Origin: Scilla litardierei
Taxonomy: Eukaryota; Streptophyta; Magnoliopsida; Asparagales; Asparagaceae
Assembly (NCBI GenBank): GCA_030789695.1
Contig: CM061135.1
Location: 111,298,301-111,362,300, forward strand
Direction: 5' to 3'
Length of the DNA stretch: 64,000 nucleotides
This document shows, in pieces, positions 10,101 to 59,671 of the stretch. The notes beneath the pieces are model-generated. The model saw nothing but the letters and a program-made list of their open reading frames with translations. It made no database searches and was not told where the DNA came from. Every line of letters starts with the position of its first letter. The first letter of the stretch is position 1. Both the position numbers and the translations under genes were made by a program.

Positions 10101-11836
10101 TGATTTGGTTGGATTGCCATATATATGTTTTTTTCCTCTGTGGACCTAACGTGCGCACACACAAAATATATACATATGAATATACCTCTCAACGTAGGTC
10201 CACCGGAGTATGTTTTGCTACCAGCCTTAAACTTGGCAACATTTCTTTTCAAGGATAAACCCCCAACCAAGTAAAAGGGCTGTCAACTAAATTATCTGTC
10301 AAATCTTTGATGCATCAAAATTTTTTTAGTCAGGTATAGTTTTGGCGTTAAAACACCTACATATGTGTTGTATTCAATGTAAAAGAAGTCCGACTAAAAC
10401 AGTAGCCATGCATTTGAAATGATCTCCCTATCGACTAATCCACTGTATTATTATTGAATACTAAAAGGTTAATGAATGGTACACAGTACTACCTATTCAT
10501 TCTAATAATGTAAACGAAATGTTATAAAAAGTAATTAAGCCCCATACAAATACCGTACTTAATAGGACTTTTCTGATTTAAAAAAGTATCTGGGAACTCA
10601 ACAAAACAAATTATAAGCACAATTATAATTCAAAAATCGCAAAATATATACATTTGAATATACCTCTCAACGTAGGTTGGCCGGCTAGGTTGGAATGTAA
10701 ATTGATAATGTGGATAATCCTTTTCCAAAGACGACTAGATTGGCATGTAAAGTAAAGAGGGTAAAGATATGGACATTAACATGTTAACAATGATATGTAT
10801 GAAACCTGTCAAGTGATATCATTCTGTACATCCAACGTCATAAATTAATAAACCAAATATGATCTAACAAATACTAATTAACAAACTGTTATGATTACCG
10901 CAGCAAAATATTTACTGCATAAACTATTAGGGAAGAGTCAGTGAGAATCAAGGCAAAATGATTATTGATAAAATCTTTGTAGGATGCTTGATACTTTCCT
11001 CGCATCTTGCAGCTTGAATATGATGTTGTTGTCAGAGCTCTTTTGGTTCAAAGATGTGAAATTTTTTTGGTTTGCATAATTGGTCTGGTTCATGCTTAGC
11101 TTCAGCCACATGGTATATAATACAAAGCTAATTACATAATCAATGAGGTTAGCTAGATCTCGTTGTCTGCCAACTAACTTCCATCACATTTTACAGCAAA
11201 TTCATCAAACTTTATGGCGTGTCGTTTCCAAATCACAAATTCAAGAAACTTGTCATCAACAAATAAGCGTGTCTAGATTAAGTAGGAAAAATTCAAAAGG
11301 GTTTGACCATGGTATGAATGGGGTTGACTATCAGCATCCAGTGTCCACATAAACCAATTCCAACACTGCAGATGATATGAATAATCAATCTATGATATTC
11401 ATAATTTTATTCATATGAAATTAGAACAAAGATTCAATTTTTGACATAAATCCATACACATATTCTATTTTTAACATAAATCCATACCTTCTTGATGCAT
11501 CCCGCATCCTGGTTCGAGATGCCATCAAAAAGCAAAACAAAGATTCAATTTTTAAACTGACCCAAATCCTTCCATACATCCCGATCCTTCCAACCGACCC
11601 GAATCCTTCCCCTATTTATAAAGCCTAACAAAGCAAAATGATTCCAACCGAACTGATCAAACCAACAAATTTTACCAAAAATCTTACCCTGCGAGGTAAA
11701 ATCAAGAGCTCGTACCTGTGAGATTTATTGCACGAATCGAATAAGAATAAATCTCTGGATCGATTCTGAGGGCGAGAGTGAGATTCAGAGAAGGAGATGA
11801 AAGAGGAGCCTAAGAGAAGTTTGACAGGCTCTGGAT

Positions 11837-12640
11837 CCAATTCCATTTCATACATCAATAAATATGCAAGCTCATGTTTGAGTGGAATTTTGACAGGAAG
11901 GCTCATGTTGCATAATTTTGTTGTATGAAAACTTCCATTTCCTGTAAAATTTTGATGTATGAAAACTTCCATTTTCTATAAAATTTCAAATTCAAATATG
12001 CTAAATTTCATATTGAATCATATTCCAATTCCATTTCATACATCAGTAAATATGCAAGCTCATGTTTGAGTGGAATTTTGACAGAAAGGCTCATGTTGCA
12101 TAAATTTGATGTATGAAAATTTTTGACAGTAAATATGCAAACTTCCATTTCCTGTAAAAGTTTGATGTATGAAAATTTTTGTAAACTCCCATTTTACAGA
12201 ACCAAACAGTTCATGCAAATTTTGAAATGCTTCCATTTTACAGAACTTAACTTCCAATTTCCTGTATAGCTTTAACCAAAATTTTGATGTATGAAAACTT
12301 CCATTTCCTGTATAATTTTGATGTATGAAAACTTCCATTTCCTGTAAAATTTCAAATTCAAATATGCTAAATTTCATATTGAATCATATTCCAATTCCAT
12401 TTCATACATCAGTAAATATGCAAGGTCATGTTTGAGTGGAATTTTGATAGGAAGGCTCATGTTGCATAATTTTGTTGTATGAAAATTTTTGACAGTAAAC
12501 ATGCAAACTTCCATTTCCTGTAAAATTTTGATGTATGAAAATTTTTGTAAACTGCCATTTTACAGAAACAAACAGTTCATGCAAATTTTGAAATGCTTCC
12601 ATTTTACAGAACCAAACTTGTTTATGCTTCCATTTTTATA
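11837..12640. repeat. Complex tandem repeat inside H2
   Basis: A unit beginning CCAATTCCATTTCATACATC starts at 11837, 12024 and 12391, that is at spacings of 187 and 367 bp. Within and between these units a shorter phrase (GATGTATGAAAACTTCCATT, TTCCTGTAAAATTT) recurs many times. The larger period is close to twice the smaller, which suggests stepwise duplication. Confidence 0.8.
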
Positions 12641-23202: not shown

Positions 23203-23879
23203 ATGGGAATGATACTAGATGTGTATAAGTATTGAAATGCACTTATTTGTTTATATACTAGTATGCTAGTAAAAGTTTGGATATATATTGGATGTTATGT
23301 ATATAATGGTATGGGTAGCTACCGACTACCTGCTAGTATAATTTGAGTAGCTTGACTGTATGGGTGTGTAACAGCAGGATATGTATAATATGTGTGAATA
23401 GGTGTGTGCCCATATATGTTAATGTGTGTGCATGTTGCATGGGTCCTAATACGTACATACATGCATGTCTATGTGCATATCTACTATTAGTGTAATAGTC
23501 TTGTGTGTAGGCGTGTACATGTATTTGGTTGTATGCAGATTCAGAAATCTATGTTTGGTATTGATACTTATACATCTCTGGGTCTATAATGAGTATGTGA
23601 TTGAGGAATATCTATGTGGGGTATTGCTTGTTGCGTATATGTGAATATGTGTCATAGTTGTATGAATTTCTATTATACATGCCACAATGGAGTGTAGGGA
23701 TGTGCTCAAGTGTATGTAGTGTGCAGTAGGAGCATACGTAATGATGTGTATATTGGATGAATGAATATATATATATATACTTATACATATCTTTGTTTGT
23801 TTACCTACTAATCTACCCTATAGGGTTGTTTATCCAGATGTATCTCAGCGTGCTTTGAATAAATGTATTCTTGTTTGTA

Positions 23880-23965
<86 letters not shown>

Positions 23966-25111
23966 TCTGTACCAAAGCATGTGTGTATGTATATACATGT
24001 GCAATGTGGGTGTAAATGTGGTAGATATGGAATATAGGTGTATACATGTTTGATAAGTGTAAGTGAATGAAACTGTTTAATATGTGGGTATTGAACTGTG
24101 TGTATTTGGTTGCACATTATACGTATACGTGTGTGGAGTGTAGATGGATATTTATATTTATTTGACTATTATGGCAGTATGTGCGAAGGATATGCAAGTG
24201 TGGTTACATATATAGCATATGGGAGAACGCATTATGTTTGTGCACTTTTGTGTGTATTATGTGTAGTATATGTGCCTATCTGTGTGAGGTAGTAGGTGCA
24301 TCACCATGAATGTGAAATTGTGTGTGTATTTAACTATAATTATAATTATGGACCTTATGGGATTTGATCATGCATGTGTTAGTACGTGTCCGTAGGAGTG
24401 TGTATGGATGTGACTAAATAATATGTGTATATAGATATTTATGTGCCTGTAAATGTGAGTGAACCAATATGACTAAGTATTGGGTGTATAGGGATCCTGT
24501 GTACATACGGTGTGACACCGTGATAGTGACCATGTTTATCAAGTAATAATGTGTAGATTAATGTGTATTATTGTGTGTTTGTGCATGGATATAGACATAT
24601 ATGTAAAAATATAAACAGGTAGGATGTAAGTCATTTATACCTGAATGTATTATGGTGTATATGAAAACGTACCATGTGTGAGTGCCTTATGGATCAAGAT
24701 ATGGATATGATGTGATGTCATATTACATAGGTATGAGTAGTGATCTGGATACGTATAATGATACATATAGAGATCTATTTGTGGTATGTGTGTGTGTGTT
24801 GTATCTGTTAGTGTATATAATATGCTTAGATATTTATGTGAAGGATGCCTATGTGTGTGTGTATATATATGTAGTGAATGCATATAGTGATGTGGATGTG
24901 CTACTAAATGAATAATAGGATGTATATGGGATATGTGTGTCAGGCGGGTGTGTATGGATTATAGTGAAGCATATAGTGTATATAAGTGTGGTGTAGATAT
25001 GTATTCTTGTTGGTGATTCATGGGTAGAAAGACCATCATACCTAGCTGATCTTTGCCAGGATTCACACCCTAGGAAGTCCGAGGACGGACTTTATTTTAA
25101 GGTGGGTAGGA
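23203..25111 (+). mobile_element. 3' internal part of Del/Tekay-like element, copy A
   Basis: TG- and TA-rich, non-coding DNA that is nearly collinear with 55150-56960 (copy B). It ends with CCGAGGACGGACTTTATTTTAA and a purine tract (GGTGGGTAGGA), the arrangement found just upstream of the 3' LTR in Del/Tekay chromoviruses. No gag or pol motif is present, so this appears to be a large non-autonomous derivative. Its left edge is the TA tract next to the 3' end of H4. Open frames across TA tracts (Tyr-Ile repeats) are not genes. Confidence 0.55.
23884..23962. repeat. (TA)n microsatellite
   Basis: About 39 TA dinucleotides; the matching place in copy B (about 55840) has only a very short run. 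Confidence 0.95.
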
Positions 25112-27000
25112 TGTTATGCCCTATTTTGAGCTATACGTGTATTCTACTGAACACACGTGGTATTTCCACTTACGATATAAGGGTAGGCTTGGAATACACA
25201 TAGATATCAATGTATGTAGCATAGTGCAAGGGGTATTGGGCTGTAATACGTGGCTAAGAGAAGAGAATGGGAAATGTGAATGCGGGAGAAGTGCGAGTGA
25301 CGTCGTGTGTATTATACAACGCGTATGTATTGGGCGTATGAGTGTGATGCGTGTATGCATGCGTAGGTGTGCATGGTTGTGTGTAGGGGGAGCCATGCTA
25401 GTGTGAAAAGGGGTTAGGGGTCAATGGCAACCCCCGTAATTTTTTAGAAAGGTGAGGGGCAAAATGGTCATTTTGACCAAGGATGCTGTGTGTACATACT
25501 AAAGTGGTGTGTGCATAAAGTAATGGCACACTTGTAATTATTGGGAAGTTAAGAGGGTATTTTGGTCATTTAATGTGTTGCATGCTAATCCTAAGAGATG
25601 GTTCTACGTGGAGATTTTTTAAGGAAGTTTCTTCTCATTTCTAAACCATTCCTTCCCCTTTTCATTTCTATCTTCTCTCCTCTCTCTCCCATGCTAGGGC
25701 CGGCCATCCCTCCCCCCTTTTCTCCATCCTGTTCAACTCAAAACCCTAATTCTTTCATCCAAAAATCAAGTATCTCAAGTAGATTGCAAAAGAGAAGAAG
25801 GTGGAGAAGAAAGGAGGAAGAGGAGAAAAAACCAAGTTTTGGAGGTAGGAATCTACTTGGACTTGGAACTCTATTAATTGGTTCTTGTGATCATGTTTTT
25901 ATAGCATGTTTTTATTCAATATGTGATAGGGATAGTCAAATTTATATGCCATGGCTTAATTTCACAAATTTCCCTTTGAAATTCTTAGCAAACTCATCTC
26001 CTTTGAAATTCTGAAATCATGATGTCTGTTGTTGCTTTGATTCTGGTAACTGTAGCTCGAATTATGTTTCGAAAAACTTATATACTTGTAGATCTTGGAG
26101 TTCTACCCCAAAATATTATAAATTTTGATATATGTTCAATTCAAAAATTAGGAGCAAAAATTCGAACTTTACAGCATGTCTGTTTGATCTTCAGTCTGGA
26201 CACAGTTAAGTAAATTTGACCTCAGTAACTGCACACACAATGGAATTTTATGTTCTTGTTATCGTTGGAAATTTAACAATATTTTCTACAATTTCATCTC
26301 AGTGGATATTTTTCGAAATTCTGGCTAAAACATGGCCAAAACAGCAATCTTTACAGACCCTGAAATTTATCTGAAAAACAGATTTGATAGACTTCACAAA
26401 ATAATTCATCATAAATCACCTACTAAATATTTTTGAATGAAATTTTATCTGTGAATCCAGGACTAATATATCTACAACTTTCATTTAGGAAGTTTTGTTA
26501 AAATCTGAATATAGTTGGGTGATATCAGCCATCTTCTATGACTGCATGCATATTTCCTGCAAGTTGAATAGATAAGTGGTGTGATAGATTGTGTATTATT
26601 GCTATTCCACTCTCTATGATACATGACTATTATTTTTACATGGAAGATAGACTACTGATATGTTTTGTCAATTGATTTGCTAATGTGATTATAGACATAT
26701 ACATCACGCTCACCACGTGTTTGTGAAAATGCCTCTAATACATGGAAGTGAGAAACATGAATAATGTGCTTGTAAACACTTGAATTATGAATTATGTTGT
26801 GAATTGGTAATGATGGCGTCATGGAGAGCATGGTTTCATATGTGATGAATAATGAACTGATATGGCTATGATGTAGGGCATGACACTTGGGTGCTTGTCC
26901 CATGTTGATATGTGATGTGACTACAATGGATGGCATGACAGTACGGTGTATGACCCATGTTGGTGTAAGTGTGGAATATGATACCATGCAACATGATTCC
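25112..27000 (+). repeat. Del/Tekay-like LTR, copy A, left part
   Basis: The LTR starts TGTTATGCCC after the purine tract and is interrupted after position 27000 by the Athila-like element. Its right part is 49011-50105. Together they make about 2984 bp with TGTTA...TGACA ends. The terminal GGGGCGTGACA and the TGTTATGCCC start resemble Del/Tekay chromovirus LTRs (TGTAACGCCC...GGGGCGTGACA). The sequence matches copy B from 26171 onward; the first 1059 bp are missing from copy B. The pyrimidine-rich stretch at 25600-25760 may be leader sequence. Confidence 0.65.
26996..27000. repeat. Target-site duplication ATTCC of the Athila-like element
   Basis: ATTCC precedes the left LTR here and follows the right LTR at 49006-49010. 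The unoccupied sequence (...ATGATTCCTTCATTAC...) is preserved at about 57778-57795 in copy B, with one ATTCC. Confidence 0.95.
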
Positions 27001-27294
27001 TGATCACTCCGTATTTTACACCTTTTTTCTGCATGTTTGCATGCCATTTAGATCGCTCAAATCGTGTTTTTCACGTTTATTCGACAATATTGCGATGCTT
27101 TTCACGATTTGTTGTTTTTGTCGTATTTCAGGAGATTTGGAGTGATTTGAAGTGATTCTGAGATGCACCCACTCTGGAGTATCACCGACGACTCTCTTGA
27201 GGGGTATTTTGCTATTGGAGAGGAGTGGAAGGAGAAAGAATGTCGTAGGAGCGACGAGGAGGCGAAAATATGAAGTTTGGGCACTTTGAGCATT

Positions 27295-27690
27295 TCACTC
27301 GGCCGAGTGAAGGAGTCACTCGGCCGACCATAGGAAGCCTGCTCGGCCGGCCAGATCAGACACGCAACAGAGCCAATATTAGCGTGCACTCGGCCGAGCA
27401 TCGCCATGCCACTCGGCCGAGCACCGAGTCACCCCTCGCCCGAGTGGAGCCAAGACGACGGCAACAAAAGATGCCGAACTCTCTGTTTTTCGTCTGTACA
27501 GTCCCGATGACTGACTCGGCCGAGTGGAAAAAGACGGTCCGCCTGAGTGACAACCGACGTCCGCCCGAGTGACGAAAGACCGTCCGCCCGAGTGACCTCC
27601 GAGGAGATGACCCCCGAGACCACCAACTCTCTGTTTCTGTACAGGGTTCGTCACTCGGCCGAGTGACATTTGTCACTCGGCCGAGTGAGC
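27295..27690. repeat. Phased CTCGGCCGAG palindromes in LTR U3
   Basis: The core CTCGGCCG occurs at 27298, 27319, 27342, 27389, 27412, 27515, 27654 and 27676; neighbours within a group are 21-23 bp apart. The best copy is 16 bp (TCACTCGGCCGAGTGA, 27295-27310). After 27515, half sites (GAGTGA) continue at 22-23 bp steps (27544, 27566, 27589). All lie upstream of the TATA-like box. The same block recurs in the 3' LTR (37157-37550). Confidence 0.9.
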
Positions 27691-27770
27691 CGCGCTGCCT
27701 GAAGCGTAAACTGCGGATTTGAGGCTGCGCAGGGGAATTTCGACCGGGTTTTTTGGACGATTTTGGGGGG

Positions 27771-27777
27771 TATTTAA
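27771..27777 (+). promoter_or_regulatory. TATA-like box of the Athila LTR
   Basis: TATTTAA after a GGGGGG run, about 770 bp into the LTR; also at 37635-37641 in the 3' LTR. The assignment is by sequence and position only. Confidence 0.5.
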
Positions 27778-28167
27778 CCCCAGTTTTTAACCTAGTTTAG
27801 AGAGCCTTTTTCAGGACTTTGGCAGCCTTTTTAGATTAACTTTTTAGGGATTAGATTGAGCTTTTAGAGAGGAGAAAAAAGTGAGATTTTGTTGGATGCT
27901 ATCTTGTTCTTCATTGGTTTGTCTCTCTTTCTCTCAAAAACTCCAGTTTTATTTATTTGTTGAATATTGCTATGAATTCCATTCATTTTACTTGTTAATT
28001 TCTATTGAATTTGATTATGAATTGTGAGTAGTTCATCGTCTTAGGGCGTAGGGATGAACCCTACAAGCCCAATTTCGAATTTGTGATGAATTGGTGAAAC
28101 TATTGCTAGGATTGATTAGGGTTAGTTTGGGATTGCTATAATACGAATAGCTAGGGATTCATACCGA

Positions 28168-28453
28168 TTGGGATTTGCAAGAGATTGGATCCCAATTCGA
28201 TAGGAAGCCCTAGATATTCGAATTGGGTTGCAATTGAATTTCTCCGGAATCGGTTTGCAAGAGATTGGACCGAAACTAGGGTTTTCGATTACAATTCTAT
28301 ACCAATACCCGTTTGCAAGAGATTGGACGGGTAGGAACTATCCCAACCTAGGTCGTAGCTCGAGTGGGCTCGAGATACGATTGAACGATGATGTTGTTCT
28401 TCACGCTAGTTTGCCTAGGTTAGGGTTTGCAAGAGATTGGACCCTACCCTAGG
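28168..28453 (+). repeat. Array of four hairpins with a constant 14-nt loop (5' LTR)
   Basis: TTGCAAGAGATTGG occurs four times (28175-28188, 28255-28268, 28313-28326, 28427-28440). Each copy is flanked by a different inverted repeat: TTGGGAT/ATCCCAA, TCGGT/ACCGA, TACCCGT/ACGGGTA, and TAGGGT/ACCCTA extended by CCTAGG/CCTAGG. The stems differ in sequence but each is self-complementary, while the loop does not change. The array lies downstream of the TATA-like box and so would be in the transcribed leader. Confidence 0.9.
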
Positions 28454-28820
28454 TTGGCTATAGACCGGCAATAGCACGAGAGCGTGAGCTTGGTTCCACA
28501 TTTAGTTGCAACTAGTTCACCCAAGTTTCAAGTTTAGCAATTGTGAAACCTACGAATCACAATGATGAGATACGGCAAGTAGCGGGGATTCCCTATCCCC
28601 TAAGCGTCTTTATTAATTTGTTATTCCTTTATTACATTTGAACGACTGTGACCGCATATTTGCGAACATTTCTCGACTTTTCCTATAGCCAGGTGATTGA
28701 AGAAGACACTGTTATTAGGCCTCCCTGTGTTCGATACCCGCTCGCCGCTACACCGTGCGCTTGAGGTAAGACTACAGTGTCGCCGCTCCGGGACATGTAT
28801 CCGGTGCGCGACCAAGTTTT

Positions 28821-28836
28821 TGGCGCCGTTGCCGGG
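28821..28836 (+). promoter_or_regulatory. Primer-binding site, tRNA-Asp type
   Basis: TGGCGCCGTTGCCGGG, six bases after the LTR end, is complementary to the 3' end of plant tRNA-Asp, the usual primer of Athila elements. It primes minus-strand synthesis. Confidence 0.9.
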
Positions 28837-28980
28837 AAGGCATTTTGACGGAGTTCGATTTTGATCACCCGGTTATTTTTCTTCAATTTCTTTACTTATT
28901 TCTTCATTCTTTTCTAACTCTGTTTACCGCCCTATTTTGCAAGCTCTCCCGAAATTTTCCGCAAGATCTTAACAGGTAAA

Positions 28981-31900
28981 ATGGGGGATGCAATTCCAAT
29001 GACTGAGTCTGGCCAGGGAGATGATGAATCTTTTGCGGAGCTCCTCAAGGAACTTATTGATGAGGTCTACGCTACCGGAGCTTTTACTATTAATATCGAG
29101 GACCCCGTCGAACAACTGTTTGCTAGCTTCGTGGTGGATCAAATCTCCCCGGATGGGACTATTGGGGGCGATATCAGAGTTGATGAGAGGGACGACAAGC
29201 TATATTTTGAAGGCGATAGAACACGTGTCGAAGAGTACTACACTCCCGAGGAACACTTCGAACAAACCGATATTCAGGGAGATACACTCTATGACCCCCA
29301 CTCTTGCATTTATGAATCTGCTGACGTATTTCTTGATCTCAGGAATGAACCGGAACAAGGTGGTGGTCTTATCGATGCAAGCGCGGAATCGGAGAGCGTC
29401 TATTCCGATACACCGTCCTCACTAGGAAGCGAATCTGAGCCTCCACTCGAGAGTGAGCTAAACTCAGATGTTGAAGGAGAAGCCAAATTCACACAAGATG
29501 ACGAAGCAAAGGGTGCGGCACCCTTTAAGGTAGAGCTTAAACAATTACCGCCGAATCTAAGGTATGCTTTCTTGGGTAGTAAATTGACCTTCCCGGTGAT
29601 TGTTAATGCCCACCTTGGCCAAGATCAACTTGAAAAACTATTAGAAGTCCTTAGGGATCACAAGGATGTTCTTGGCTACACTATCTCTGACCTTAAGGGA
29701 ATAAGCCCTAGGCTATGCACGCATAGGATCCACTTGGAAAACACTGAAGCCTCTTCTGTTGAGCCTCAAAGGCGGTTGAACCCGAATATGAAAGAGGTAG
29801 TCAAGAAGGAAATCCTAAAATTGCTTGAGGCCGGAATTATCTACCCTATCTCTGACAGTAGATGGGTTAGCCCCGTTCACGTCGTCCCCAAAAAGGGGGG
29901 ATGACCGTTATAAAAAATGAAAAGGGAGAGCCCATTTCTACACACACTGTCACTGGATGGCGGATGTGTATTGATTACCGAAAACTAAACAAAGCCACCC
30001 TAAAAGACCATTACCCACTACCCTTCATAGATCAAATGCTTGAACGGCTTGCTAAACATAAATACTTTTGTTACTTGGATGGGTATTCGGGGTTTTTCCA
30101 AATCCCTTTGCATGAAGATGACCAAGAAAAGACTACTGTTACTTGTCCTTATGGCACTTACGCTTACCGTAGAATGCCTTTTGGCATTTTTCATGCACCC
30201 GCCACCTTTCAGAGGTGCATGACCTCCATCTTTTCCGAATATATTGAAAATATTATGGAAGTTTTCATGGATGATTTCTCAGTTTATGGAAGTGAGTTTG
30301 ATTCTTGTTTGGCTAATCTTACCAAAGTACTTAAAAGATGTCAGCAAAATAATCTTACTCTTAATTGGGAGAAATGTCATTTCATGGTCACCGAAGGGAT
30401 AGTGCTTGGGCACCTTGTCTCATCGAGAGGAATTGAGGTAGATAAGGCAAAGATTGAGGTAATCGAGAAACTCCCTCCTCCTATTAATGTCAAGGGCATT
30501 AGAGGATTTCTTGGCCATGCGGGGTTTTACCGCCGCTTTATCAAGGATTTCGCCTTGATTGCCCGACCTCTTACTTCCTTGCTTGCTAAAGATGCTCCAT
30601 TTGTTTTTTCAGGTGAATTCTTGCAAGCCTTCAATACAGGCACTAATTTCTGCGCCCATCATCCAACCACCGGATTGGAGCCTTCCCTTTGAACTCATGT
30701 GTGATGCAAGTGACCAAGCAATTGGAGCGGTATTGGGGCAAAGGAAAGATAGGAAGCTTCATGCAATATTCTATGCAAGAAAAACGTTGGATGACGCACA
30801 GAAAAATTACACAACTACGGAGAAAGAGCTTCTAGCGGTCGTGTACTTCATTAAAAAGTTCCGCTCATATCTCCTTGGATCCAAGGTAATTGTCCACACT
30901 GACCATGCGGCATTGAAGTATCTCCTAAACAAGAAAGAGGCCAAACCTAGGTTGATAAGGTGGATACTTCTATTGCAAGAGTTTGACTTGGAAATCAGAG
31001 ATAAGAAGGGTACGTACAACGTTGTGGCGGACCATTTGTCTAGCTTATTCGTGACAAGGAGGACGAAAGTTTGCCCATCGATGACTCCTTTGTTGATGAG
31101 AGGCTATACGCCATAAGGCCCGGGGAAGTTCCTTGGTATGCGGACTATGTCAATTACTTGGCTTGTGGGATTAAACCATGCGGGATGCCCACACAACAAA
31201 AGAGGAGGTTTATGCATGAGGTCCGTAGCTATTTCTGGGAAGATCTGTATCTCTTTAAGATATGCAAGGATGGGGTTCTCCGGAGATGTATTTCTAAGGA
31301 GGAGGCCACCTCCATCATCTTGCATTGCCATGGTATGCCATGCGGGGGACATCACGCCGCTTCTAAGACTACCGCTAAGATATTGCAGAGCGGATTCTTT
31401 TGGCCGACCATGTTCAGAGACACGCACGACTTCGTCAAGGCGTGCGATAGATGCCAACGGACCGGGAATATTTCCAAACGAAATGAGATGCCAATGAAGC
31501 TCATCCTAGAGATTGAGCTCTTTGATTGTTGGGGAGTGGACTTCATGGGACCATTTCCGTCAAGCAAGGGTAACAAGTATATCTTATTTGCCGTGGACTA
31601 CGTCTCCAAATGGGTAGAAGCCATCGCCACCCCTACCAATGATGCAAGGGTTGTCTCAAGGTTTTTCAAGCAGAATATTTTCCCGCGCTTTGGGGTGCCC
31701 CGTACTTTGATAAGCGACGGGGGAATCCACTTTATCAAAAACAAATTTGAAGCTATGTTGAAAAAGTACGGGGTAAACCATAGAATTGGCATGGCCTACC
31801 ACCCTCAGACGAGCGGACAAGCGGAAGTCTCAAATAGAGAAATCAAGAAAATTCTTGAAAAGACCGTAGATCGATCTAGAAAAGATTGGTCCATGAAGTT

Positions 31901-32432
31901 AAACGATGCTTTATGGGCATATCGCACGGCTTTTCGCACCCCTATTGGCACCACACCGTTCCGACTCGTCTATGGGAAGGCTTGTCACCTACCGGTAGAG
32001 TTGGAGCACCGCGCGTATTGGGCCATCAAGACCCGCAATTATGACTATAAGAGTGCGGCGGTGAGGCGACTCTTGGACATCAATGAGCTTGACGAAATTA
32101 GAAGAGATGCCTATAAGAGCTCAAGAATTTACAAAGAGAGGACCAAGATTCTCCACGACGCCCGCATAACTGTCACGGACTTCAAGGTCGGAGACAAGGT
32201 CTTACTATATAACTCCCGACTCCGACTATTCCCCGAGAAGTTGAGGTCATGGTGGTCCGGGCCTTTCACCATCAAGCGCATACAACCGGGAGGAGCATTT
32301 GAATTGGAAGGGAAAGACGGAGCCACTTTCAAGGTGAATGGGCAACGTCTAAAGCATTATTCTGAAGGAGTCCCTATAGGCGAGGTGAATAGAATATATG
32401 GGACGGCCGGACGACCTTTCATACATCCTTGA
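28981..32432 (+). pseudogene. Athila-like pol (RT, RNase H, integrase) with three frame breaks and no gag
   Basis: The first ATG after the primer site (28981) opens a 307-codon frame. Residues 1 to about 175 are acidic and unlike any gag or protease that I know; from about residue 185 it is the start of the Athila RT (NLRYAFLG, RRLNPNMKEVVKKE, SDSRWVSPVHVVPKK). It stops at 29904. RT continues one base back from 29901 with CIDYRKLN, YLDGYSG, TCPYGTYAYRRMPFG and the catalytic FMDD (residues 122-125 of that frame). A second shift near 30640 leads to RNase H ([39 protein letters not shown]). A third near 31055 leads to integrase: zinc finger H87/H94/C125/C128, catalytic D157, D216 and E252 (DD35E), counted from 31071. 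No active polyprotein can be made. Confidence 0.9.
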
Positions 32433-33159: not shown

Positions 33160-33500
33160 CTCGACCGAGTACCATAGACACTCGACCGAGCAACCAACAT
33201 CGTTCGCCCGAGTGGCGCACCAACGAGGGAAGTCTGCTGCACCCAACTCTCTATTTTTTTTTTGATTTCAGTATAAATTTCCACTCGGCCGAGTCTATAT
33301 CTTCACTCGGCCGAGTGAAACTGATACGCTCCTAGGGCGAGAATTGCCGAGTAGCTTGTGCCACTCGGCGGAATGGACTTTTTCCACTCGGCCGAGGGTG
33401 GCAAAGCCACTCGGCTGAGTCGTATGAGGGGAGGAGTTTTTTAAAAATATTTTTCGTTACGATCACTCGACCGAGTGACACCCTCACCCGGCCGAGTCGT
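33160..33500. repeat. Second block of phased CTCG(G/A)CCGAG palindromes, upstream of the extra ORF
   Basis: Cores at 33160/33181, 33284/33306, 33364/33387/33410 and 33466/33487, mostly in pairs 21-23 bp apart. They are variants of the U3 motif (CTCGACCG, CTCGGCCG, CTCGGCTG). The block ends about 15-20 bp before a TATA-like box (33510), repeating the arrangement seen in the LTR. Confidence 0.85.
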
Positions 33501-36863: not shown

Positions 36864-38367
36864 TGATCACTCCGTATTTTACACCTTTTTTCTGCATGTT
36901 TGCATGCCATTTAGATCGCTCAAATCGTGTTTTTCACGTTTATTCGACAATATTGCGATGCTTTTCACGATTTGTTGTTTTTGTCGTATTTCAGGAGATT
37001 TGGAGCGATTTGGAGTGATTCTGATATGCACCCACTCCGGAGTGTCACCGACGACTCTCTTGAGGGGTATTTTGCTGTTGGAGAGGAGTGGAAGGAGAAA
37101 GAACGTCGTAGGAGCGACGAGGAGGCGAAAATATGAAGTTTGGGCACTTTGAGCATTTCACTCGGCCAAGTGAAGGAGTCACTCGGCCGACCATAGGAAG
37201 CCCGCTCGGCTGGCCAGATCGGACACGCAATAGAGCCAATATTAGCGTGCACTCGGCCGAGCATCGCCATGCCACTCGGCCGAGCACCGAGTCCCCCCTC
37301 GCCCGAGTGGAGCCAAGACGACGGCAACAAAAGATGCCAAACTCTCTGTTTTTCGTCTGTACAGTCCCGATGACTGACTCGGCCGAGTGGAAAAAGACGG
37401 TCCACCCGAGTGACAACCGACGTCCGCCCGAGTGACGAAAGACCGTCCGCCCGAGTGACCTCCGAGGAGACGACCCCCGAGACCCCCAACTCTCTGTTTC
37501 TGTACAGGGTTCGTCACTCGGCCGAGTGACATTTTTCACTCGGCCGAGTGAGCTGTGCTGCCTGAAACGTAAACTGCGGATTTGAGGCTGCGCAGGGGCA
37601 TTTTCGTCAGGGTTTTTTGGACGATTTTGGGGGGTATTTAACCCCAGTTTTTAACCTAGTTTAGAGAGCCTTTTTCAGGACTTTGGTAGCCTTTTTAGAT
37701 TAACTTTTTAGGGATTAGATTGAGCTTTTAGAGAGGAGAAAAAAGTGAGATTTTGTTGGATTCTATCTTGTTCTTCATTGGTTTGTCTCGCTTTCTCTCA
37801 AAAACTCCATTTTTATTGATTTGTTGAATATTGCTATGAATTCCATTCATTTTACTTGTGAATTTCTATTGAATTTGATTATGAATTGTGAGTAGTTCAT
37901 CGTCTTAGGGCGTAGGGATGAACCCTATGAGCCCAATTTCGAATTTGTGATGAATTGATGAAACTATTGCTAGGATTGATTAGGGTTAGTTTGGGATTGC
38001 TATAATACGAATAGCTAGGGATTCATACCGATTGGGATTTGCAAGAGATTGGATCCCAATTCGATAGGAAGCCCTAGATATTCGAATTGGGTTGCAATTG
38101 AATTTCTCCGGAATCGGTTTGCAAGAGATTGGACCGAAACTAGGGTTTTCGATTACAATTCTATACCAATACCCGTTTGCAAGAGATTGGACGGGTAGGA
38201 ACTATCCCAACCTAGGTCGTAGCTCGAGTTTGCATGAGAGTGGGCTCAAGATACGATTGAACGATGATGTTGTTCTTCACGCTAGTTTGCCTAGGTTAGG
38301 GTTTGCAAGAGATTGGACCCTACCCTAGGTTGGTTATAGACCGGCAATAGCGCGAGAGCGTGAGCTT
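36864..38367 (+). repeat. 3' LTR of the Athila-like element, left part
   Basis: Starts TGATCACTCC and matches the 5' LTR to the base before the copia insertion; it continues at 48684-49005. The palindrome block is at about 37157-37550 and the TATA-like box at 37635-37641. Confidence 0.95.
38032..38329 (+). repeat. Hairpin array in the 3' LTR (four intact, one decayed)
   Basis: Constant loops at 38039-38052, 38119-38132, 38177-38190 and 38303-38316, with the same stems as in the 5' LTR. A fifth loop, TTGCATGAGAGTGG at 38230-38243, sits between CTCGAGT (38223-38229) and GCTCAAG (38244-38250), which pair at six of seven positions including one G-T. In the 5' LTR this fifth loop is absent. Confidence 0.9.
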
Positions 38368-39726
38368 TGTAATTCTAGCCTATAAGGATCAAATACACTA
38401 GAGGGGGGGGTGAATAGTGTATATTAAAAAATTAACTGTTGCAATTAAAGAGTTACTTCTAATTGCTTAACGTGTGCAGAAAGTAAAGTATGTAGAAAAT
38501 GTAAATCAAACGCAAACACAGAGATTTATCCTGGTTCGGATCCTTTTGATCCTACTCCAGTCCTCTACCCCGTAGAGATTTTCAATCCACTATAATCACT
38601 TGCCCCGCAAGCACCAACTTACAAAAATGGAGACACTCCCCGTGTCCCAAAATTTGTACAATCTCAAAAGAGATTCAAACATGTTAAATAAGAAATAGAA
38701 AAACACCTATAGCCTTGGTATGAATTTAGAATGAAATTCAAGGATGGTGTTTTCAAAAGAGACTTCAAGATATATAAGATATGAAATGAAGAACAATACT
38801 TGAAGTTCTCTGGTTCATAAAAGAAGAGAGAGATCAATCGATTTCTTCTTACAATTATGAACACAAACAACTTTCTAAAATGATGTTGAAAAAGATCAAA
38901 ATTGCTTCAAGGAAGAAAACTTCAATTTCCAAAAGATCTATGATTAAGAATCTTGAAGTTCTTCTGTTCTCATAAGAAGAGAGAAATCTATGGATTTCTT
39001 CTTGCAAATGAGAAAAGAGCAACTAAGGCAAGATTGCTTAGAATCAACAATTCTAGGAAGAAAGAGAGAAGAAAGTTGTGTGGAAAGAATGAGGGGTATG
39101 CCCACTTATTTATAGTATTTTTGGGTAGTTATTCTGAGGGAAAATGGGGGGAAAAGGAGTTTCCTACCGTTCAGAAACGGTCTAGAAAGTTTCAGAAAAA
39201 ACGGACACAAAAACTTCATTAGTCGACTAAAGAAGGCTTTGTCGACTAAAAGTCAAACTTTGGAATTTTTGACTGAAATTTTAACGGTAACTTTCTGAAG
39301 TTGACTGAAGACTACTTAGAAATTTTCAGGCCAAAATTCGAAGAAAAAATGTTTAGTCGACTAATGTTTGCCTTAGTCGACTAAGACAGAAAAACGTAAA
39401 TTTTGACTTGTCTGAAAAAGGGTTGGTAGGATATGTTATTAGGAACCTAGGACTTAGATGGATTTCATATTCAAGGCTCTGAAATCTATAAATATAAAAA
39501 ATACATTAGTCCGTAGATTTCCGTAGATATGTATGATGAGCTTCACGTGAGTATTTGAGATGCCTCTGTGCAGGGATTCCTTATCAAGTGATTATTGTCC
39601 AAGTGTGGATATATTGGAAAACTGCACATCTGCATAGATAGAGTGAGTAGCAATAATAATAGTTGTCACATCAAAATCTTATGGAATAGAATAGGAAAGT
39701 GAACATGGGATTATGAAATCCCAACA
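38368..39726 (-). repeat. 3' LTR of the copia element
   Basis: On the minus strand it runs TGTTGGGATTTC...GGCTAGAATTACA. The TATA box (TATAAATA, minus) is at 39107-39114. Upstream of it in U3 lie two palindrome pairs, 39219-39249 and 39353-39384. Confidence 0.95.
39219..39384. repeat. Paired TTAGTCGACTAA palindromes in the copia 3' LTR
   Basis: 12-bp palindromes at 39219-39230 and 39238-39249 (the second with one changed base), and at 39353-39364 and 39373-39384. Start-to-start spacing is 19 and 20 bp. Confidence 0.95.
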
Positions 39727-39740
39727 TTCTCCCCCTTTTT
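39727..39740 (-). promoter_or_regulatory. Polypurine tract of the copia element, with two more copies nearby
   Basis: AAAAAGGGGGAGAA on the minus strand, directly before the 3' LTR. Similar purine runs (AAGGGGGAG) lie at 39843-39851 and 39869-39880. Confidence 0.85.
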
Positions 39741-39910
39741 GATGATGACAAATATTTATAAAAAGTGAAGTGTCATACTCAGTTATATGCAGATATCATA
39801 TCATATGTTATACTTAGTGTTATATGATGATAAATATGTATGCTCCCCCTTAAAATTGCCTAAATATTCTCCCCCTTTGTCATTGAAAAAAAGATGGGGT
39901 AAAAATTATG

Positions 39911-39942
39911 TTAGTCGATTAAAGAATTTGTTAGTCGACTAA
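39911..39942. repeat. Palindrome pair downstream of the copia extra ORF
   Basis: TTAGTCGATTAA (39911) and TTAGTCGACTAA (39931), exactly 20 bp apart. Confidence 0.95.
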
Positions 39943-40252
39943 GAGGAATAATAACACAAAACAGAACAGACAATGGAACAAAGTTTTCACAAAACAGAAC
40001 CAAACAGAATTTACTAAACAAAACGAGATAGAAATCATACAAGCAAGCAGACTGTCCCACATATCTAGTACTAAGGCCCTACGGCCTAGAACAACTATGA
40101 CTGAGAATCGTCAAACAGATTGTGGCCAATGCCCATCACCAAAAGCCCGAATGCCTGCAACCCAAAAAGAAAATACCACAACATTCAGCAAACAGCAAAC
40201 ACCGACGACATGAGATAATAACTAGGATAACGAGGACAACGAACGACAAGGT

Positions 40253-41491
40253 CTAACGTCCGAAAGGAGAACCATAGTCCTGAGAATTACGACGCGATCT
40301 ACGACGGGGTGTTTCCTCTGGAGCAACCACATTCAAAGCCTCAAGTGCAGAAACAAGCTTGGTCTGGTTGAGTTGAACTTGGTCGAGCACATGAGCTTGT
40401 TCAGTTAAGGCAGACCGAAAGTCCCTAAACCCAGTAGTGACCGTATCGCGAAGAGAGCGAACATCCTTGCGAAGACCGTGAAGTGTAGTCTGGGTAGTTT
40501 GGCAAGGAGTAGAGGATGTCCATGGGGTCTTTAAGGGAAAGGACTGAGGATTGGTTCGACACTCAGGAAAACACTTATGGACGCATTGTTTCTTAACAAA
40601 ACGACAGAAACCACGGGATGAACCCGAAGTAGAGGAAGAGGGGCCGAAAGTGTTTTGGGTCGGAGTATAGTCGGGGTCGGTTGAAGTAGGGTTTTCTACG
40701 GGGTCTTCGTCAGGATCTTCATCGGTGTCATCATCATCACTATTGGCCGCATCGGATTCCTCAGGGTCCGGAAGATCCAAATGCATATTGTGCAAAGTGA
40801 TGATGTTGATATTATAAGGATTGGAGACGGCAAGTTCTCCGTCGAGAGGAACACAAAAAATTTTGAGTACCAAGTTTATGAATGAGGGATGATAGATATG
40901 AGTTTGAACTGGCCGAAGAAGAGACTGCAAGATCACGAAACCCCAGTTAATAGGTAACCCGCCCATCACCGCATAGAGGCAATGCTCCAATTCGTTGGAA
41001 AGATATTTAAAGGAGCCGCCTTTCGGCATAAGATTGGAAACTATAACCTTAAGGATGATGCGAGCAGGTGGGTGGAAATGAACAGCAGAGAGTTTATGGA
41101 CCCAAGGGGTTGCGATTTTTGTTAGGATACGAGGATCGGTCATTGTAAAGTTGAGAGAACCTGAAAAATGTGGAGGAAGATCAATCAACTCACAGATCCG
41201 ACGAAGAGTTAGACAAATTGGAAGATTCTTGATGCGGGTGAGAAGATGGGTATCACGACCGATGACGCACGACTCGAGATTGGCGTAGAATTCGCGGACG
41301 AGAAGGGGGTAGTATGGTTCCTTGTTGCCGAGTGCCCAAATCTTTTCGAGGCCGGCTGCGGAAAGGATGGAGAGGATATTGAAGGAAGCAAGAGCAGTAT
41401 AATCAATGAAGCGCTCAGGATGGAACTTTGCATTTGCGGAGGCGTTGAAGCGATTTTCAGCCGCGGCATCACGAAATTGAGGGAGAGCCAT
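40253..41491 (-). CDS. Intact extra ORF of the copia element (putative plant transposon protein type)
   Basis: The frame is open from 41572 (439 codons). I prefer the second ATG at 41491 (412 codons, MALPQFRD) because the first 27 codons are a Ser-rich run and overlap a TATA-like TATTTAT at 41562-41568. About residues 50-250 (numbered from the first ATG) form a globular region with PYYPLLVREFYANLES and ICLTLRRICELIDLP, which resembles the 'putative plant transposon protein' domain found in extra ORFs of several plant retroelements. An acidic linker (about 270-300, SDDDDTDEDPDEDP) follows, then a Ser/Thr/Pro stretch with some Cys. The C-terminal helix (about 370-420) has coiled-coil spacing (LRKDVRSLRDTVTTGFRDF). 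I see no signal peptide or transmembrane segment, so an envelope role is unsupported. It lies between pol and the 3' LTR, in the same orientation, and is unbroken although gag-pol is not. The function is unknown. Confidence 0.7.
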   Translation of the reverse strand: MALPQFRDAAAENRFNASANAKFHPERFIDYTALASFNILSILSAAGLEKIWALGNKEPYYPLLVREFYANLESCVIGRDTHLLTRIKNLPICLTLRRICELIDLPPHFSGSLNFTMTDPRILTKIATPWVHKLSAVHFHPPARIILKVIVSNLMPKGGSFKYLSNELEHCLYAVMGGLPINWGFVILQSLLRPVQTHIYHPSFINLVLKIFCVPLDGELAVSNPYNINIITLHNMHLDLPDPEESDAANSDDDDTDEDPDEDPVENPTSTDPDYTPTQNTFGPSSSTSGSSRGFCRFVKKQCVHKCFPECRTNPQSFPLKTPWTSSTPCQTTQTTLHGLRKDVRSLRDTVTTGFRDFRSALTEQAHVLDQVQLNQTKLVSALEALNVVAPEETPRRRSRRNSQDYGSPFGR

Positions 41492-41750
41492 CAGAGAAGA
41501 AGATGAGGATGAAGAGAGGGTTCGGTTTGGGATAAAAGAAATGGAGAGTAATTTCTGAAAATAAATAGACAATTGTGGAAGTAGTTATCCAAGTGAATGG
41601 GTGCCATGATCAGTTCGAGAGCAGTTTGAGAAACTGAATGGGTGAGATAGAACTGAAAAGTTTTCAAAAATATGTGAAGAGGCGGGAGGAAGAAGAAACG
41701 AAAACGCGAAAAGACGGAAGTTAGATCGGAAACGGTTTAAAAAAACCGAG

Positions 41751-41782
41751 TTAGTCGGCTAATAGATTGGTTAGTCGACTAA
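41751..41782. repeat. Palindrome pair upstream of the copia extra ORF
   Basis: TTAGTCGGCTAA (41751) and TTAGTCGACTAA (41771), exactly 20 bp apart, about 180-215 bp upstream of the TATA-like box of the extra ORF on the minus strand. Confidence 0.95.
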
Positions 41783-42329
41783 GGTAACCGAAATAAAAAT
41801 ATCTAGATCGCACCGTTTGGATTTTAATAATAATAAAAAATAAAATATTTTTTAAAAAAATAATAAAGATTAAGTGGGAAGGGACGGTAGTGGGTGGAGA
41901 TATTTTAAGTCTCTTGAAGTCTTGTAAGAGTGGTTGGTCATACACATTGAATTAGGTAGAGAAAGTACATTTTCCAATGGGTAATGATGAAGGAAAATGG
42001 AGAGTTCCAAGGTGAATTTATTTCAAATTCTCATTCCAAGATGAGAAAATTTCGGTTTTCTATGCAAAGTGGTGGCCGACGCAAGAAACCAAATAGGAAT
42101 CCTATGTCAGGATGCGATAATCAAGAAATTGGCTAAGTAAAAACTTAATTTTTGAAATAAAGTCTCATAGGAGAAAAGACAAACCGAATGTTTCTAGGAA
42201 AAGACAATCCCATAGAAAGATGAATGTTTAGAAAGATATTTGAAATTAATGAACAGTCCTAATAGTTAGGAAAGAAATAATAAATATATAAAACCGAATG
42301 ATAAGCAACACAAAAAAAATCTGGATATA
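41783..42329. other. Non-coding stretch between copia pol and its extra ORF
   Basis: AT-rich. I see no ORF or repeat in it apart from the flanking palindrome pairs. Confidence 0.6.
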
Positions 42330-42361
42330 TTAGTCGATTAAACAAAACGTTAGTCGACTAA
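42330..42361. repeat. Palindrome pair just after copia pol
   Basis: TTAGTCGATTAA (42330) and TTAGTCGACTAA (42350), 20 bp apart, about 60 bp past the pol stop on the minus strand. Confidence 0.95.
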
Positions 42362-47319: not shown

Positions 47320-48678
47320 TGTAATTCTAGCCTGTAAGGATCAAATACACTAGAGGGGGGGTGAATAGTGTATATTAAAAAATTAACTGTTGCAATTAAA
47401 GAGTTACTTCTAATTGCTTAAGATGTGCAGAAAGTAAAGTATGTAGAAAATGTAAATCAAACGCAAACACAGAGATTTATCCTGGTTCGGATCCTTTTGA
47501 TCATACTCCAGTCCTCTACCCCGTAGAGATTTTCAATCCACTATAATCACTTGCCCCGCAAGCACCAACTTACAAAAATGGCGACACTCCCCGTATCCCA
47601 AACTTTGTACAATCTCAAAAGAGATTCAAACATGTTAAATAAGAAATAGAAAAACACCTATAGCCTTGTTATGAATTTAGAATGAAATTCAAGGATGGTG
47701 TTTTCAAAAGAGACTTCAAGATATATAAGATATGAAATGAAGAACAATACTTGAAGTTCTCTGGTTCATAAAAGAAGAGAGAGATCAATCGATTTCTTCT
47801 TACAATTATGAACACAAACAACTTTCTAAAATGATGTTGAAAAAGATTAAAATTGCTTCAAGGAAGAAAACTTCAATTTCCAAAAGATCTATGATTAAGA
47901 ATCTTGAAGTTCTTCCGTTCTCATAAGAAGAGAGAAATCTATGGATTTCTTCTTGCAAATGAGAAAAGAGCAACTAAGGCAAGATTGCTTAGAATCAACA
48001 ATTCTAGGAAGAAAGAGAGAAGAAAGTTGTGTGGAAAGAATGAGGGGTATGCCCACTTATTTATAGTATTTTTGGGTAGTTATTCTGAGGGAAAATGGTG
48101 AGAAAAGGATTTTCCTACCATTCAGAAACGGTTTGGAAAGTTTCAGAAAAAACGGACACAAAAACTTCATTAGTCGACTAAAGAAGGCTTAGTCGACTAA
48201 AAGTCAAACTTTGGAATTTTTGACTGAAATTTTAACGGTAACTTTCTGAAGTTGACTGAAGACTACTTAGAAATTTTCAGGCCAAAATTCGAAGAAAAAA
48301 TGTTTAGTCGACTAATGTTTGCCTTAGTCGACTAAGACAAAAAAACGTGAATTTTGACTTGTCTGAAAAAGGGTTGGTAGGATATGTTATTAGGAACCTA
48401 GGACTTAGATGGATTTCATATTCAAGGCTCTGAAATCTATAAATATAAAAAAATACATTAGTCCGTAGATTTCCGTAGATATGTATGATGAGCTTCACGT
48501 GAGTATTTGAGATGCCTCTGTGCAAGGATTCCTTATCAAGTGATTATTGTCCAAGTGTGGATATATTGGAAAACTGCACATCTGCATAGATAGAGTGAGT
48601 AGCAATAATAATAGTTGTCACATCAAAATCTTATGGAATAGAATAGGAAAGTGAACATGGGATTATGAAATCCCAACA
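47320..48678 (-). repeat. 5' LTR of the copia element
   Basis: 1359 bp, same length as the 3' LTR. TATA box (TATAAATA, minus) at 48058-48065. Palindrome pairs at 48170/48189 and 48304/48324 lie about 105-270 bp upstream of it, in U3. All four palindromes are perfect here. Confidence 0.95.
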
Positions 48679-48683
48679 AGCTT
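48679..48683. repeat. Target-site duplication AGCTT of the copia element
   Basis: AGCTT at 38363-38367 and 48679-48683. The uninterrupted sequence GTGAGCTTGGTTCCAC is seen in the 5' Athila LTR near 28485. Confidence 0.95.
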
Positions 48684-49005
48684 GGTTCCACATTTAGTTG
48701 CAACTAGTTCACCCAAGTTTCAAGTTTAGCAATTGTGAAACCTACGAATCACAATGATGAGATACGGCAAGTAGCGGGGATTCCTTATCCCCTAAGCGTC
48801 TTTATTAATTTGTTATTCCTTTATTACATTTGAACGACTATGACCGCATATTTGCGAACATTTCTCGACTTTTCCTATAGCCAGGTGATTGAAGAAGACA
48901 CTGTTACTAAGCCTCCCTGTGTTCGATACCCGCCGCCGCTTTACCGTGCGCTTGTGGTAAGACTACAGTGTCGTCGCCCCGGGATGTGTATCCGAGGCGC
49001 GATCA
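48684..49005 (+). repeat. 3' LTR of the Athila-like element, right part
   Basis: Continues from 38367 and ends CGCGATCA at 49005, followed by the ATTCC target copy (49006-49010). Confidence 0.95.
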
Positions 49006-49010
49006 ATTCC

Positions 49011-50105
49011 TTCATTACTAATATGATAAAATGAAATTCTTGATTGCCTCAATCCTCTCTAAAGAGGGTGAGTTAGCAAAACTCGTGTTTAAGGGGAAAT
49101 TTGAGTAAATTGTGGATATGAGGCCTGGACTGAGAAGTTGGGGGAAATGATAACGTGATTTGTGATATTTATTCCCACTCGCATTTACAGGAGTGGAGGG
49201 GACATACGGAGGTTGTTTTATTATGGGAGTCCTCACTTCTGCCAGGGACTGGGGAGCTAAGAGGCCCGGCGTACAGTGCCCGTATCCACTGCGTCATGTG
49301 CTATATTCACCCCAAATTTGGGGTGAAGTCCAGGTCATGGTATCATGCAGTTTACCCAAGTTTCCAATTAATTCAATAATAAAATAAAAGTCTTGTATGT
49401 TACTTCTTCTGCTTACAACACTTCCTTTGTCCTTATCTGATATGCTTGTGATGACGTATATTGAGTTACACTTGTGGCATTAATACCTTCCTTTTAAATT
49501 ATGTTGGTATGAACACTTGCTTTATTACTCGTGCTAACCCTTTTCTTGCAGTCACTCGACATTGGACCGCATGTATGATCCTATTTCTTGGTTATTTACC
49601 TTTCACTATATTACTTAGTTTACTAGTCTTATGTCTCTTGCCTTGCTTTGTGTATTGATAACCTTAACACGGTGTTCCAAATCCAAGTTGGTTCCTATTG
49701 GGGCACACATTGACGTGCTCCTCCCTATTTTTTCAGGTAGCAGGGGTAGTATGGTTGGTGATGACTTGGACTGGGTCTCAGGAGTAGAACTTGGTGTGAG
49801 TTGTAGCTGTGTAGTGTGACATGGTTGTCTTGGGAGGTGGAGAGTGGCGGTGTATGTGTAGTAGTGCACTTGGACTATGTATGTAAATAAAAGTTGTTAT
49901 ATAAATCTGTTGTTGTTGTTCAATGTTATTTATAAGTTGTTTGATATTATAATAAAGCTGCACGTGTACTATCCCAGCATGTACTCAGTGGCCTGTATAT
50001 TCAGTTTCTTCTTTCTCTCTCTTTTCCTCTCTCATCACCCTCACTCTTCCGGATACTTGGAAAGAAAATTTAAATGCTGGGTATTCTGGAGAGCGGGGCG
50101 TGACA
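49011..50105 (+). repeat. Del/Tekay-like LTR, copy A, right part
   Basis: Continues from 27000 after the Athila insertion and ends GGGGCGTGACA. Collinear with 57785-58879 in copy B. The open frames in it (for example 49461-49658) are also present in copy B, but have no recognisable product. Confidence 0.75.
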
Positions 50106-55695: not shown

Positions 55696-55732
<37 letters not shown>

Positions 55733-59340: not shown

Positions 59341-59671
59341 TTTTGTATGATAAAAGTAAACTTAGTTTTGTCATGGAATACCATGGAATACCGTCATGGA
59401 ATCATGGAGTACCTTATACTGTATTATCCGTAGGGCATCGTATTATTTGTTTGCCCCTTCAACAGGTTAGACTTGTTCACCGGAAAACTGTAGAGGGTAA
59501 GCTGTTGAACAACGAGCCTTTTTCTCGTTTTGAGGGTCCCTCATATCGGGTTATTGGGATCTCCACTCCTCAATGAACCAGCTCGGTCAGCTTACGAAGA
59601 TGATGCATCTCCTTCGTTCGTATAGTTTAGTTGACGTACGAGGGGTTATCTTATGAGGGGAGTGCCCCCTT
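59341..59671. other. 3' flank of the Tat-type ORF
   Basis: A 77-codon plus frame (59343-59576) is open but has no recognisable domain. I see nothing else. Confidence 0.3.

What the first reader, a model, noticed from the sequence alone, without database searches (positions are those of the whole stretch)
28168..28453. LTR hairpin array: one constant 14-nt loop, four different self-complementary stems
Seen: TTGCAAGAGATTGG four times in 280 bp, each flanked by its own inverted repeat (TTGGGAT/ATCCCAA, TCGGT/ACCGA, TACCCGT/ACGGGTA, CCTAGG-TAGGGT/ACCCTA-CCTAGG). Simple duplication would copy the stems as well. Different stems that each still pair, around an unchanged loop, look like selection on structure plus a loop recognised by something. 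The array is downstream of the LTR TATA-like box, so it would lie in the 5' leader of the RNA. Inference: an RNA element for packaging, dimerisation, translation or regulation. I know of no description of it.
Basis: partly seen in the sequence, partly recalled or inferred. Interest (0 to 1): 0.88.

Follow-up and report, generated by a model that had tools for sequence, protein, structure and literature searches.

The report
Five-armed RNA signal in plant retrotransposon
A very abundant jumping element in a large plant genome carries, in the start region of its predicted RNA, five hairpins with different stems but the same tip, and evolution has kept those stems paired, so this RNA shape very probably does a job in the element's life cycle that our searches did not find described.

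Summary
The array lies in both LTRs of a Ty3/gypsy retrotransposon (27001-28814; 36864-38370 plus 48679-49005). The 3' LTR keeps a fifth hairpin that the 5' LTR lost by a 12-nt deletion. In the same 3.68-Gb genome the exact 14-mer occurs 167,774 times, its reversed control 5 times. In 39 aligned copies stems change on both sides: 21 of 105 pairs have two or more Watson-Crick types, against 1-6 in slid controls. For hairpin 3, genome-wide exact counts are 17,708 (CC/GG), 9,215 (TT/AA) and 10 (mismatched CC/AA). G.U far outnumbers A.C, and the sense alignment folds far better than the antisense: selection acts on sense RNA. The 'loop' is really a CAN-GAGA-NUG hairpin (GNRA tetraloop) above a UG bulge. 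The array is the best conserved part of the LTR, about 0.4 kb after a TATA-like box. A shorter lineage, with no pol match in four units sampled, keeps it re-paired. Best reading: a cis-acting multivalent packaging/dimer-type signal; nuclear export and translation control remain open.

The parts
27001..28814 (+). 5' LTR of element A (TG...CA), 5-bp target duplication ATTCC
   Evidence: self-BLAST; ends, duplication and empty site in the other repeat of host element C
36864..38370 (+). 3' LTR of element A, first part; the rest is 48679-49005 after the nested copia element B
27771..27777 (+). TATA-like box TATTTAA; transcript start inferred about 30 nt downstream
28123..28133 (+). P0, 5' arm of the helix that encloses hairpins 1-3 (one pair G-C in 14 and U-A in 13 of 28 copies)
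28152..28212 (+). hairpin 1, tip 28175-28188
28224..28299 (+). hairpin 2, tip 28255-28268
28306..28333 (+). hairpin 3, tip 28313-28326; two stem pairs are CC/GG or TT/AA genome-wide
28340..28350 (+). P0, 3' arm
28351..28382 (+). hairpin 4, truncated here by a 12-nt deletion
38215..38258 (+). hairpin 4 in the 3' LTR, tip 38230-38243 TTGCATGAGAGTGG
28405..28458 (+). hairpin 5, tip 28427-28440
28474..28485 (+). small sixth predicted hairpin with a GAGA tetraloop (exactly GCGC-GAGA-GCGU in 14 of 28 copies; one stem base differs here)
28040..28519 (+). plateau of highest conservation in the LTR, containing the array
28821..28836 (+). primer binding site TGGCGCCGTTGCCGGG (tRNA-Asp type, recalled)
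28981..32432 (+). four overlapping ORF pieces; the first (28981-29904) has no Pfam match, the others carry gypsy-type RT, RNase H and integrase

Best explanation
A cis-acting structured RNA in the 5' leader (R/U5) of a plant Ty3/gypsy retrotransposon family. About 360 nt fold into a multi-arm structure: one enclosing helix with three arms, then two more arms and a small sixth. Each of the five main arms ends in the same cap (U.G, UG bulge, CAN-GAGA-NUG). Stems are free to change as long as they pair; the cap is nearly fixed, so the cap is the likely contact surface. Shown by sequence comparison: structure, covariation, sense-strand selection, conserved cap, persistence in units in which no pol was found. 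Inferred: transcription, and that the repeated cap is bound several times over by the element's own Gag/nucleocapsid (or a host protein), so that full-length RNA is chosen, dimerised and packaged. A lineage without RT and integrase must borrow proteins and therefore must keep such a signal.
For: Covariation on 28 and 39 copies. Hairpin 3 genome-wide: 17,708 CC/GG, 9,215 TT/AA, 10 CC/AA. At one pair in matched sequence context: 636 wobble (U.G) against 88 mismatch (C.A) single variants. Sense consensus fold -90.0 kcal/mol with 116 pairs, antisense -34.7 with 66. Column identity: cap 0.956, outer stems and P0 0.852, other unpaired 0.750. Array windows (28100-28519) are 0.82-0.90 identical, against 0.55-0.70 upstream in all but two windows (28040-28099, 0.76, the edge of the plateau, and the first, poorly covered one, 0.83) and 0.57-0.76 downstream in the LTR. 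Same-strand neighbouring TT/AA arrays lie mostly 5.0-6.7 kb apart (17 of 23 gaps under 13 kb among the 100 places listed), CC/GG mostly 9.3-11.3 kb (24 of 30), counted by hand. In four TT/AA units with arrays 5.8-6.2 kb apart (two covered in full, two in part) nothing matches this element's RT, RNase H or integrase, and five ORF pieces of one have no Pfam match. Precedents read in passages: a Gag-less BARE2 keeps dimerisation and packaging signals and is packaged by BARE1 (PMC3735527); murine leukaemia virus repeats GACG-tetraloop stem-loops in its dimer linkage region (PMC5874298).
Against: No transcript, protein-binding or packaging data. Retroviral GACG loops interact with each other; GAGA loops cannot pair with themselves. 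The signal lies before the primer binding site, whereas core packaging signals of retroviruses lie after it (recalled). The short units still carry an ORF that looks gag-like to me, and one TT/AA copy (L060) matches the N-terminal part of this element's first ORF at 44% over 144 aa, so coding capacity and hence a translation role are not excluded. Six of 23 TT/AA gaps are outside the short class, three of them 10-12 kb, so TT/AA is not purely short. Most covarying pairs need only one switch on the tree (24 switches over 21 pairs).
Confidence: 0.42

Rival explanations
1. Nuclear export element: the repeated caps recruit a host export adaptor so that long unspliced RNA leaves the nucleus, as a transport element or the structured pararetrovirus leader does.
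For: A multi-arm structured leader fits; [quoted passage not shown] Keeping the element in units without pol fits equally well.
Against: No splicing problem was shown for this family; I know of no export factor that reads this cap (recall); Rfam finds no known transport element in 27001-28990.
Confidence: 0.2
2. Translation control: the array blocks scanning in a leader of about 1.2 kb with ten upstream ATGs and either drives internal entry or shunting, or keeps a separate untranslated RNA pool.
For: Ten ATGs between the inferred start and the ORF at 28981; fold of 28120-28480 at -127.6 kcal/mol, z -5.9. BARE keeps separate RNA pools (PMC3735527, passages). The short units keep an ORF that looks gag-like to me.
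Against: Five near-identical caps on different stems look like a binding platform more than a roadblock; units without pol match keep them.
Confidence: 0.2
3. Target of a host RNA-binding or small-RNA pathway, or a precursor of small RNAs.
For: Long hairpins; weak sub-threshold Rfam match to MIR5565 at 28129-28235 (23.4 bits, cut-off 80).
Against: In small-RNA precursors the arms are conserved and the loop varies (recalled); here the tip is the most conserved part (0.956 against 0.852). An element would not be expected to keep re-pairing a structure that silences it.
Confidence: 0.08
4. DNA-level feature (cruciform, protein site array) or a mutational by-product such as gene conversion of the tip.
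For: Inverted repeats form on either strand; hairpins 4 and 5 share an alternative tip CAC-GAGA-GTG.
Against: G.U 640 cells against A.C 34; antisense fold far weaker; 636 wobble against 88 mismatch; stems are specific to each hairpin position in the 39 aligned copies, so conversion would have to spare them.
Confidence: 0.03

Closest known systems
Retroviral packaging/dimer linkage regions, e.g. murine leukaemia virus SL-A to SL-D (PMC5874298, passages)
   Same: 5' leader, several stem-loops, repeated tetraloop caps
   Different: two GACG caps that interact, and palindromic dimer loops; here five GAGA caps over a UG bulge, lying before the primer binding site
BARE1/BARE2 dimerisation and packaging signals of barley (PMC3735527, passages)
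   Same: plant LTR retrotransposon, signal kept by a non-autonomous partner
   Different: Ty1/copia; the words stem-loop and hairpin do not occur in that paper's main text
Structured leader of cauliflower mosaic virus and transport elements (PMC12786077, passages)
   Same: long structured leader read by host proteins
   Different: no repeated constant cap described in the passages seen
RNA phage coat-protein operators such as MS2 (recalled)
   Same: tetraloop plus a bulge a few pairs below, stem sequence largely free
   Different: different tetraloop and bulge; no relation implied

Membership tests
Any of 4,227 Rfam families (hammerhead/retrozyme, transport elements, miRNA, riboswitch) | match at gathering score | tested here: not met
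   three matches with E up to 1 in 27001-28990, all below cut-off
Conserved structured RNA element | two-sided compensatory changes above controls | tested here: met
Conserved structured RNA element | acts as sense-strand RNA | tested here: met
   by sequence bias only:
LTR-element packaging/dimer signal | lies in the genomic RNA leader | tested here: inconclusive
   TATA-like box upstream in 21 of 21 LTR pieces; no transcript data
LTR-element packaging/dimer signal | kept in elements that need proteins in trans | tested here: inconclusive
   four short units without RT, RNase H or integrase match (two covered in full, two in part); small sample, diverged pol could be missed, and their mobility is inferred from copy number only
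LTR-element packaging/dimer signal | binds Gag/nucleocapsid and directs packaging | not testable with these tools
   none
Athila lineage of plant Ty3/gypsy | RT/integrase phylogeny | not tested
   gypsy RT, RNase H and integrase by Pfam; nearest annotated proteins are from plants such as Tanacetum, Arachis, Centaurea and Malus; none of the (shortened) names in the 120 rows listed of 7,995 says Athila
Athila lineage of plant Ty3/gypsy | tRNA-Asp-type primer binding site (recalled) | tested here: met
   exact 15-mer in 9 of 21 LTR pieces at +646 to +694 from the first tip; the pieces may include 3' LTRs, which have none; the tRNA assignment is recalled

The most novel reading that the evidence does not exclude
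A previously undescribed class of plant retrotransposon signal: a five-armed RNA platform with one fixed cap that multivalently recruits Gag (or one host factor), shared by a long lineage and a shorter pol-less one, and kept paired across some tens of thousands of LTRs, so that the structure helps decide which RNAs are mobilised in this genome.
Probability: 0.38. Interest if true: 0.85.

Novelty: new variant of a known kind. Interest (0 to 1): 0.76.

Why it matters
[quoted passage not shown] This gives a concrete, very abundant, statistically strong RNA element with an obvious candidate contact surface and natural variants, so the question becomes testable by probing, pull-down and reporter assays. 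It also shows that the many copies of one element in one plant genome can serve as a covariation data set for retroelement RNA structure.

Tried and rejected
Viral contigs: the 16-mer gave 29 hits, none with stems like these; a primer-binding-site pattern gave no hit and the integrase no confirmed relative. Prokaryote genome contigs: one hit to an 18-mer, in a bacterial metagenome bin, not pursued. Rfam: nothing above cut-off. Array read as protein against 5.8 billion proteins: 15 candidates, none with E up to 1 (a weak test, and no other plant genome could be searched, so presence in other species is unknown). A generic scan for other hairpins with a 3-nt/1-nt internal loop and a GNRA tip over the window and 40 loci gave 7 scattered hits and no array. 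Literature searches: exact 14-mer, Athila with hairpin (20 of 39 listed), packaging signals in plant LTR elements, GNRA tetraloop, conserved RNA structure with covariation, Athila with packaging: no title or abstract start listed describes it; the papers themselves were not opened except three in passages, and only open-licence papers are held. A G.U/A.C count on 28 copies (163 against 13) used helices chosen with G.U allowed; the 39-copy count has the same bias, so carry the argument. The counts for the neighbouring pair's single changes and for the double wobble were never obtained. One pair in hairpin 5 (five bp below the tip) is unpaired in 12 of 28 copies.

Full report
What is there. The window is a nest of retrotransposons: an element C with a pair of long repeats, probably LTRs (23204-27000 continued at 49006-50106; 55149-58880), was hit by element A, whose 3' LTR was hit by copia element B. 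Element A has LTRs 27001-28814 and 36864-38370 plus 48679-49005, a 5-bp target duplication ATTCC and an empty site in the other C repeat. Of four ORF pieces scanned, three carry gypsy-type RT, RNase H and integrase and the first has no Pfam match; no gag was recognised, so this copy is probably defective. The array sits in each LTR.

The 3' LTR has a fifth hairpin, lost from the 5' LTR by a 12-nt deletion. And the constant 14 nt are themselves a small hairpin: three pairs around a GAGA (GNRA) tetraloop, above a UG bulge and a U.G pair, in four of the five single folds; hairpin 4 of this copy folds its tip differently on its own. The whole region 28120-28480 folds to -127.6 kcal/mol, z -5.9 against 100 shuffles.

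Family data. The window lies in an assembly of 3.68 Gb. The exact 14-mer occurs 84,400 + 83,374 times, the reversed control 1 + 4. A conserved stretch just after hairpin 5 (CTATAGACCGGCAAYAG) occurs 30,569 times, control 7, so there are about thirty thousand LTR copies or more. Of 20 stretches of 10 kb at arbitrary places, 5 held arrays, 6 in all, and all 6 had five tips within two mismatches. Together with 20 listed sites and the window's two this gave 28 arrays, then 39 (L089 left out). Tip spacing is 80, 57-58, 53, 71-73 in 26 of 28, the exceptions being the window's 5' LTR and L072, both with deletions. Arrays were recognised by at least three tips with up to three mismatches, so tip conservation is partly ascertained; stems are not.

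Covariation. RNAalifold finds 116 pairs, 18 with a two-sided change. On a 105-pair structure 97.5% of cells pair (slid versions 22.7-49.8%); both-side-change pairs 18 against 12.0 (sd 2.1) and covariation score 0.208 against 0.145 (sd 0.004), 0 of 500 shuffles each; the count of further pair types was not raised (68 against 68.7). The structure was drawn from these sequences, which favours it over slid versions. On a tree built from unpaired columns only, 21 pairs have two or more Watson-Crick types with 24 switches; slid controls, with at least 80% pairing required, give 1-6 pairs and 1-7 switches. Most of these pairs need a single switch, and several have the same two-group pattern, so independent events are fewer than cells suggest.

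Genome-wide test on hairpin 3. TACCCGT/ACGGGTA 17,708; TATTCGT/ACGAATA 9,215; the mixed CC/AA form 10, all ten on one strand of the assembly, which I cannot explain. The single change giving a U.G wobble occurs 636 times, the mirror change giving C.A 88 times. Because the stem is palindromic both sites have the same mutational context, so the sevenfold excess points to selection on the sense RNA, although amplification of a few lineages makes the copies non-independent. Cells: G.U 640, A.C 34 (structure chosen on the sense strand). Consensus folding energy -90.0 sense, -34.7 antisense.

What is conserved. Along the LTR the array and its edges (28040-28519) are 0.76-0.90 identical in 21 copies; windows upstream of that are 0.55-0.70 except the first, poorly covered one (0.83), downstream LTR windows 0.57-0.76. 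Within the array, caps are 0.956, outer stems and P0 0.852, other unpaired 0.750. The third inner pair is the variable one, and it varies as A-U, C-G or U.G. So stems are kept for pairing and caps for sequence. A TATA-like box lies 361-425 nt before the first tip in 21 of 21 pieces (17 TATTTAA, 3 TATATA, 1 TATAAA).

Who carries it. Neighbouring CC/GG arrays on one strand are mostly 9.3-11.3 kb apart (24 of 30 gaps under 13 kb), TT/AA arrays mostly 5.0-6.7 kb (17 of 23), counted by hand from the 100 places listed in each. Four TT/AA units with arrays 5.8-6.2 kb apart were looked at: two covered in full (L043; L062 with L091 and L063) and two in part (L092, L093). None has a match to this element's RT, RNase H or integrase, five ORF pieces of L043 have no Pfam match, and the other three loci are each about 90% identical to L091 where they align. 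The first ORF looks gag-like to me. Another TT/AA copy, L060, matches the N-terminal part of this element's first ORF at 44% over 144 aa. The long lineage holds pol here, and L053 has integrase-like DNA (92% over 307 aa) in the same stretch as an array.

Mechanism. Shown by sequence comparison: a sense-strand RNA structure under selection with a nearly fixed cap. Inferred: leader position. Most likely function is recognition of the genomic RNA for dimerisation or packaging by repeated binding to the caps, because units without pol match keep it; export and translation control remain real rivals, and separating them needs experiments.

Known or new. No Rfam family and no listing in the searches named under Tried and rejected describes it. 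Structured leaders with repeated loops are a known kind of thing in retroviruses; five stems with one cap in a plant LTR was not found described in these searches. Hence: new variant of a known kind.

Noticed in passing
27298-27685, 33284-33396, 37252-37548: Palindrome CTCGGCCGAG: 15 copies in the window against 0.01 expected, 14 of them inside element A, 11 of these in the LTRs upstream of the TATA-like box.
   Followed up: partly
39219-42361 and 48170-48335: A different palindrome, TTAGTCGACTAA, 14 copies (up to one mismatch, 0.09 expected), all inside copia element B and set in pairs about 20 bp apart.
   Followed up: partly
28474-28485: A sixth, smaller GAGA-tetraloop hairpin right after hairpin 5, in the most conserved 60-nt window of the LTR; exact consensus form in 14 of 28 copies.
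   Followed up: partly
L043, L091, L092, L093: Units with arrays 5.8-6.2 kb apart and no recognisable pol use the same kind of LTR and seem abundant.
   Followed up: partly
28161-28204 and 28299-28340: Hairpins 1 and 3 share flanks (ATACC[GA]AT before, [AG]TAGGAA after) although their stems differ, a hint that arms arose by duplication and were then re-paired.
   Followed up: no
G000 C3, C4, C6: All ten CC/AA mismatched hairpin-3 copies lie on the reverse strand of the assembly; unexplained.
   Followed up: no
11836-12619 and 59655-60102: Tandem or near-tandem repeats outside the retrotransposons studied.
   Followed up: no
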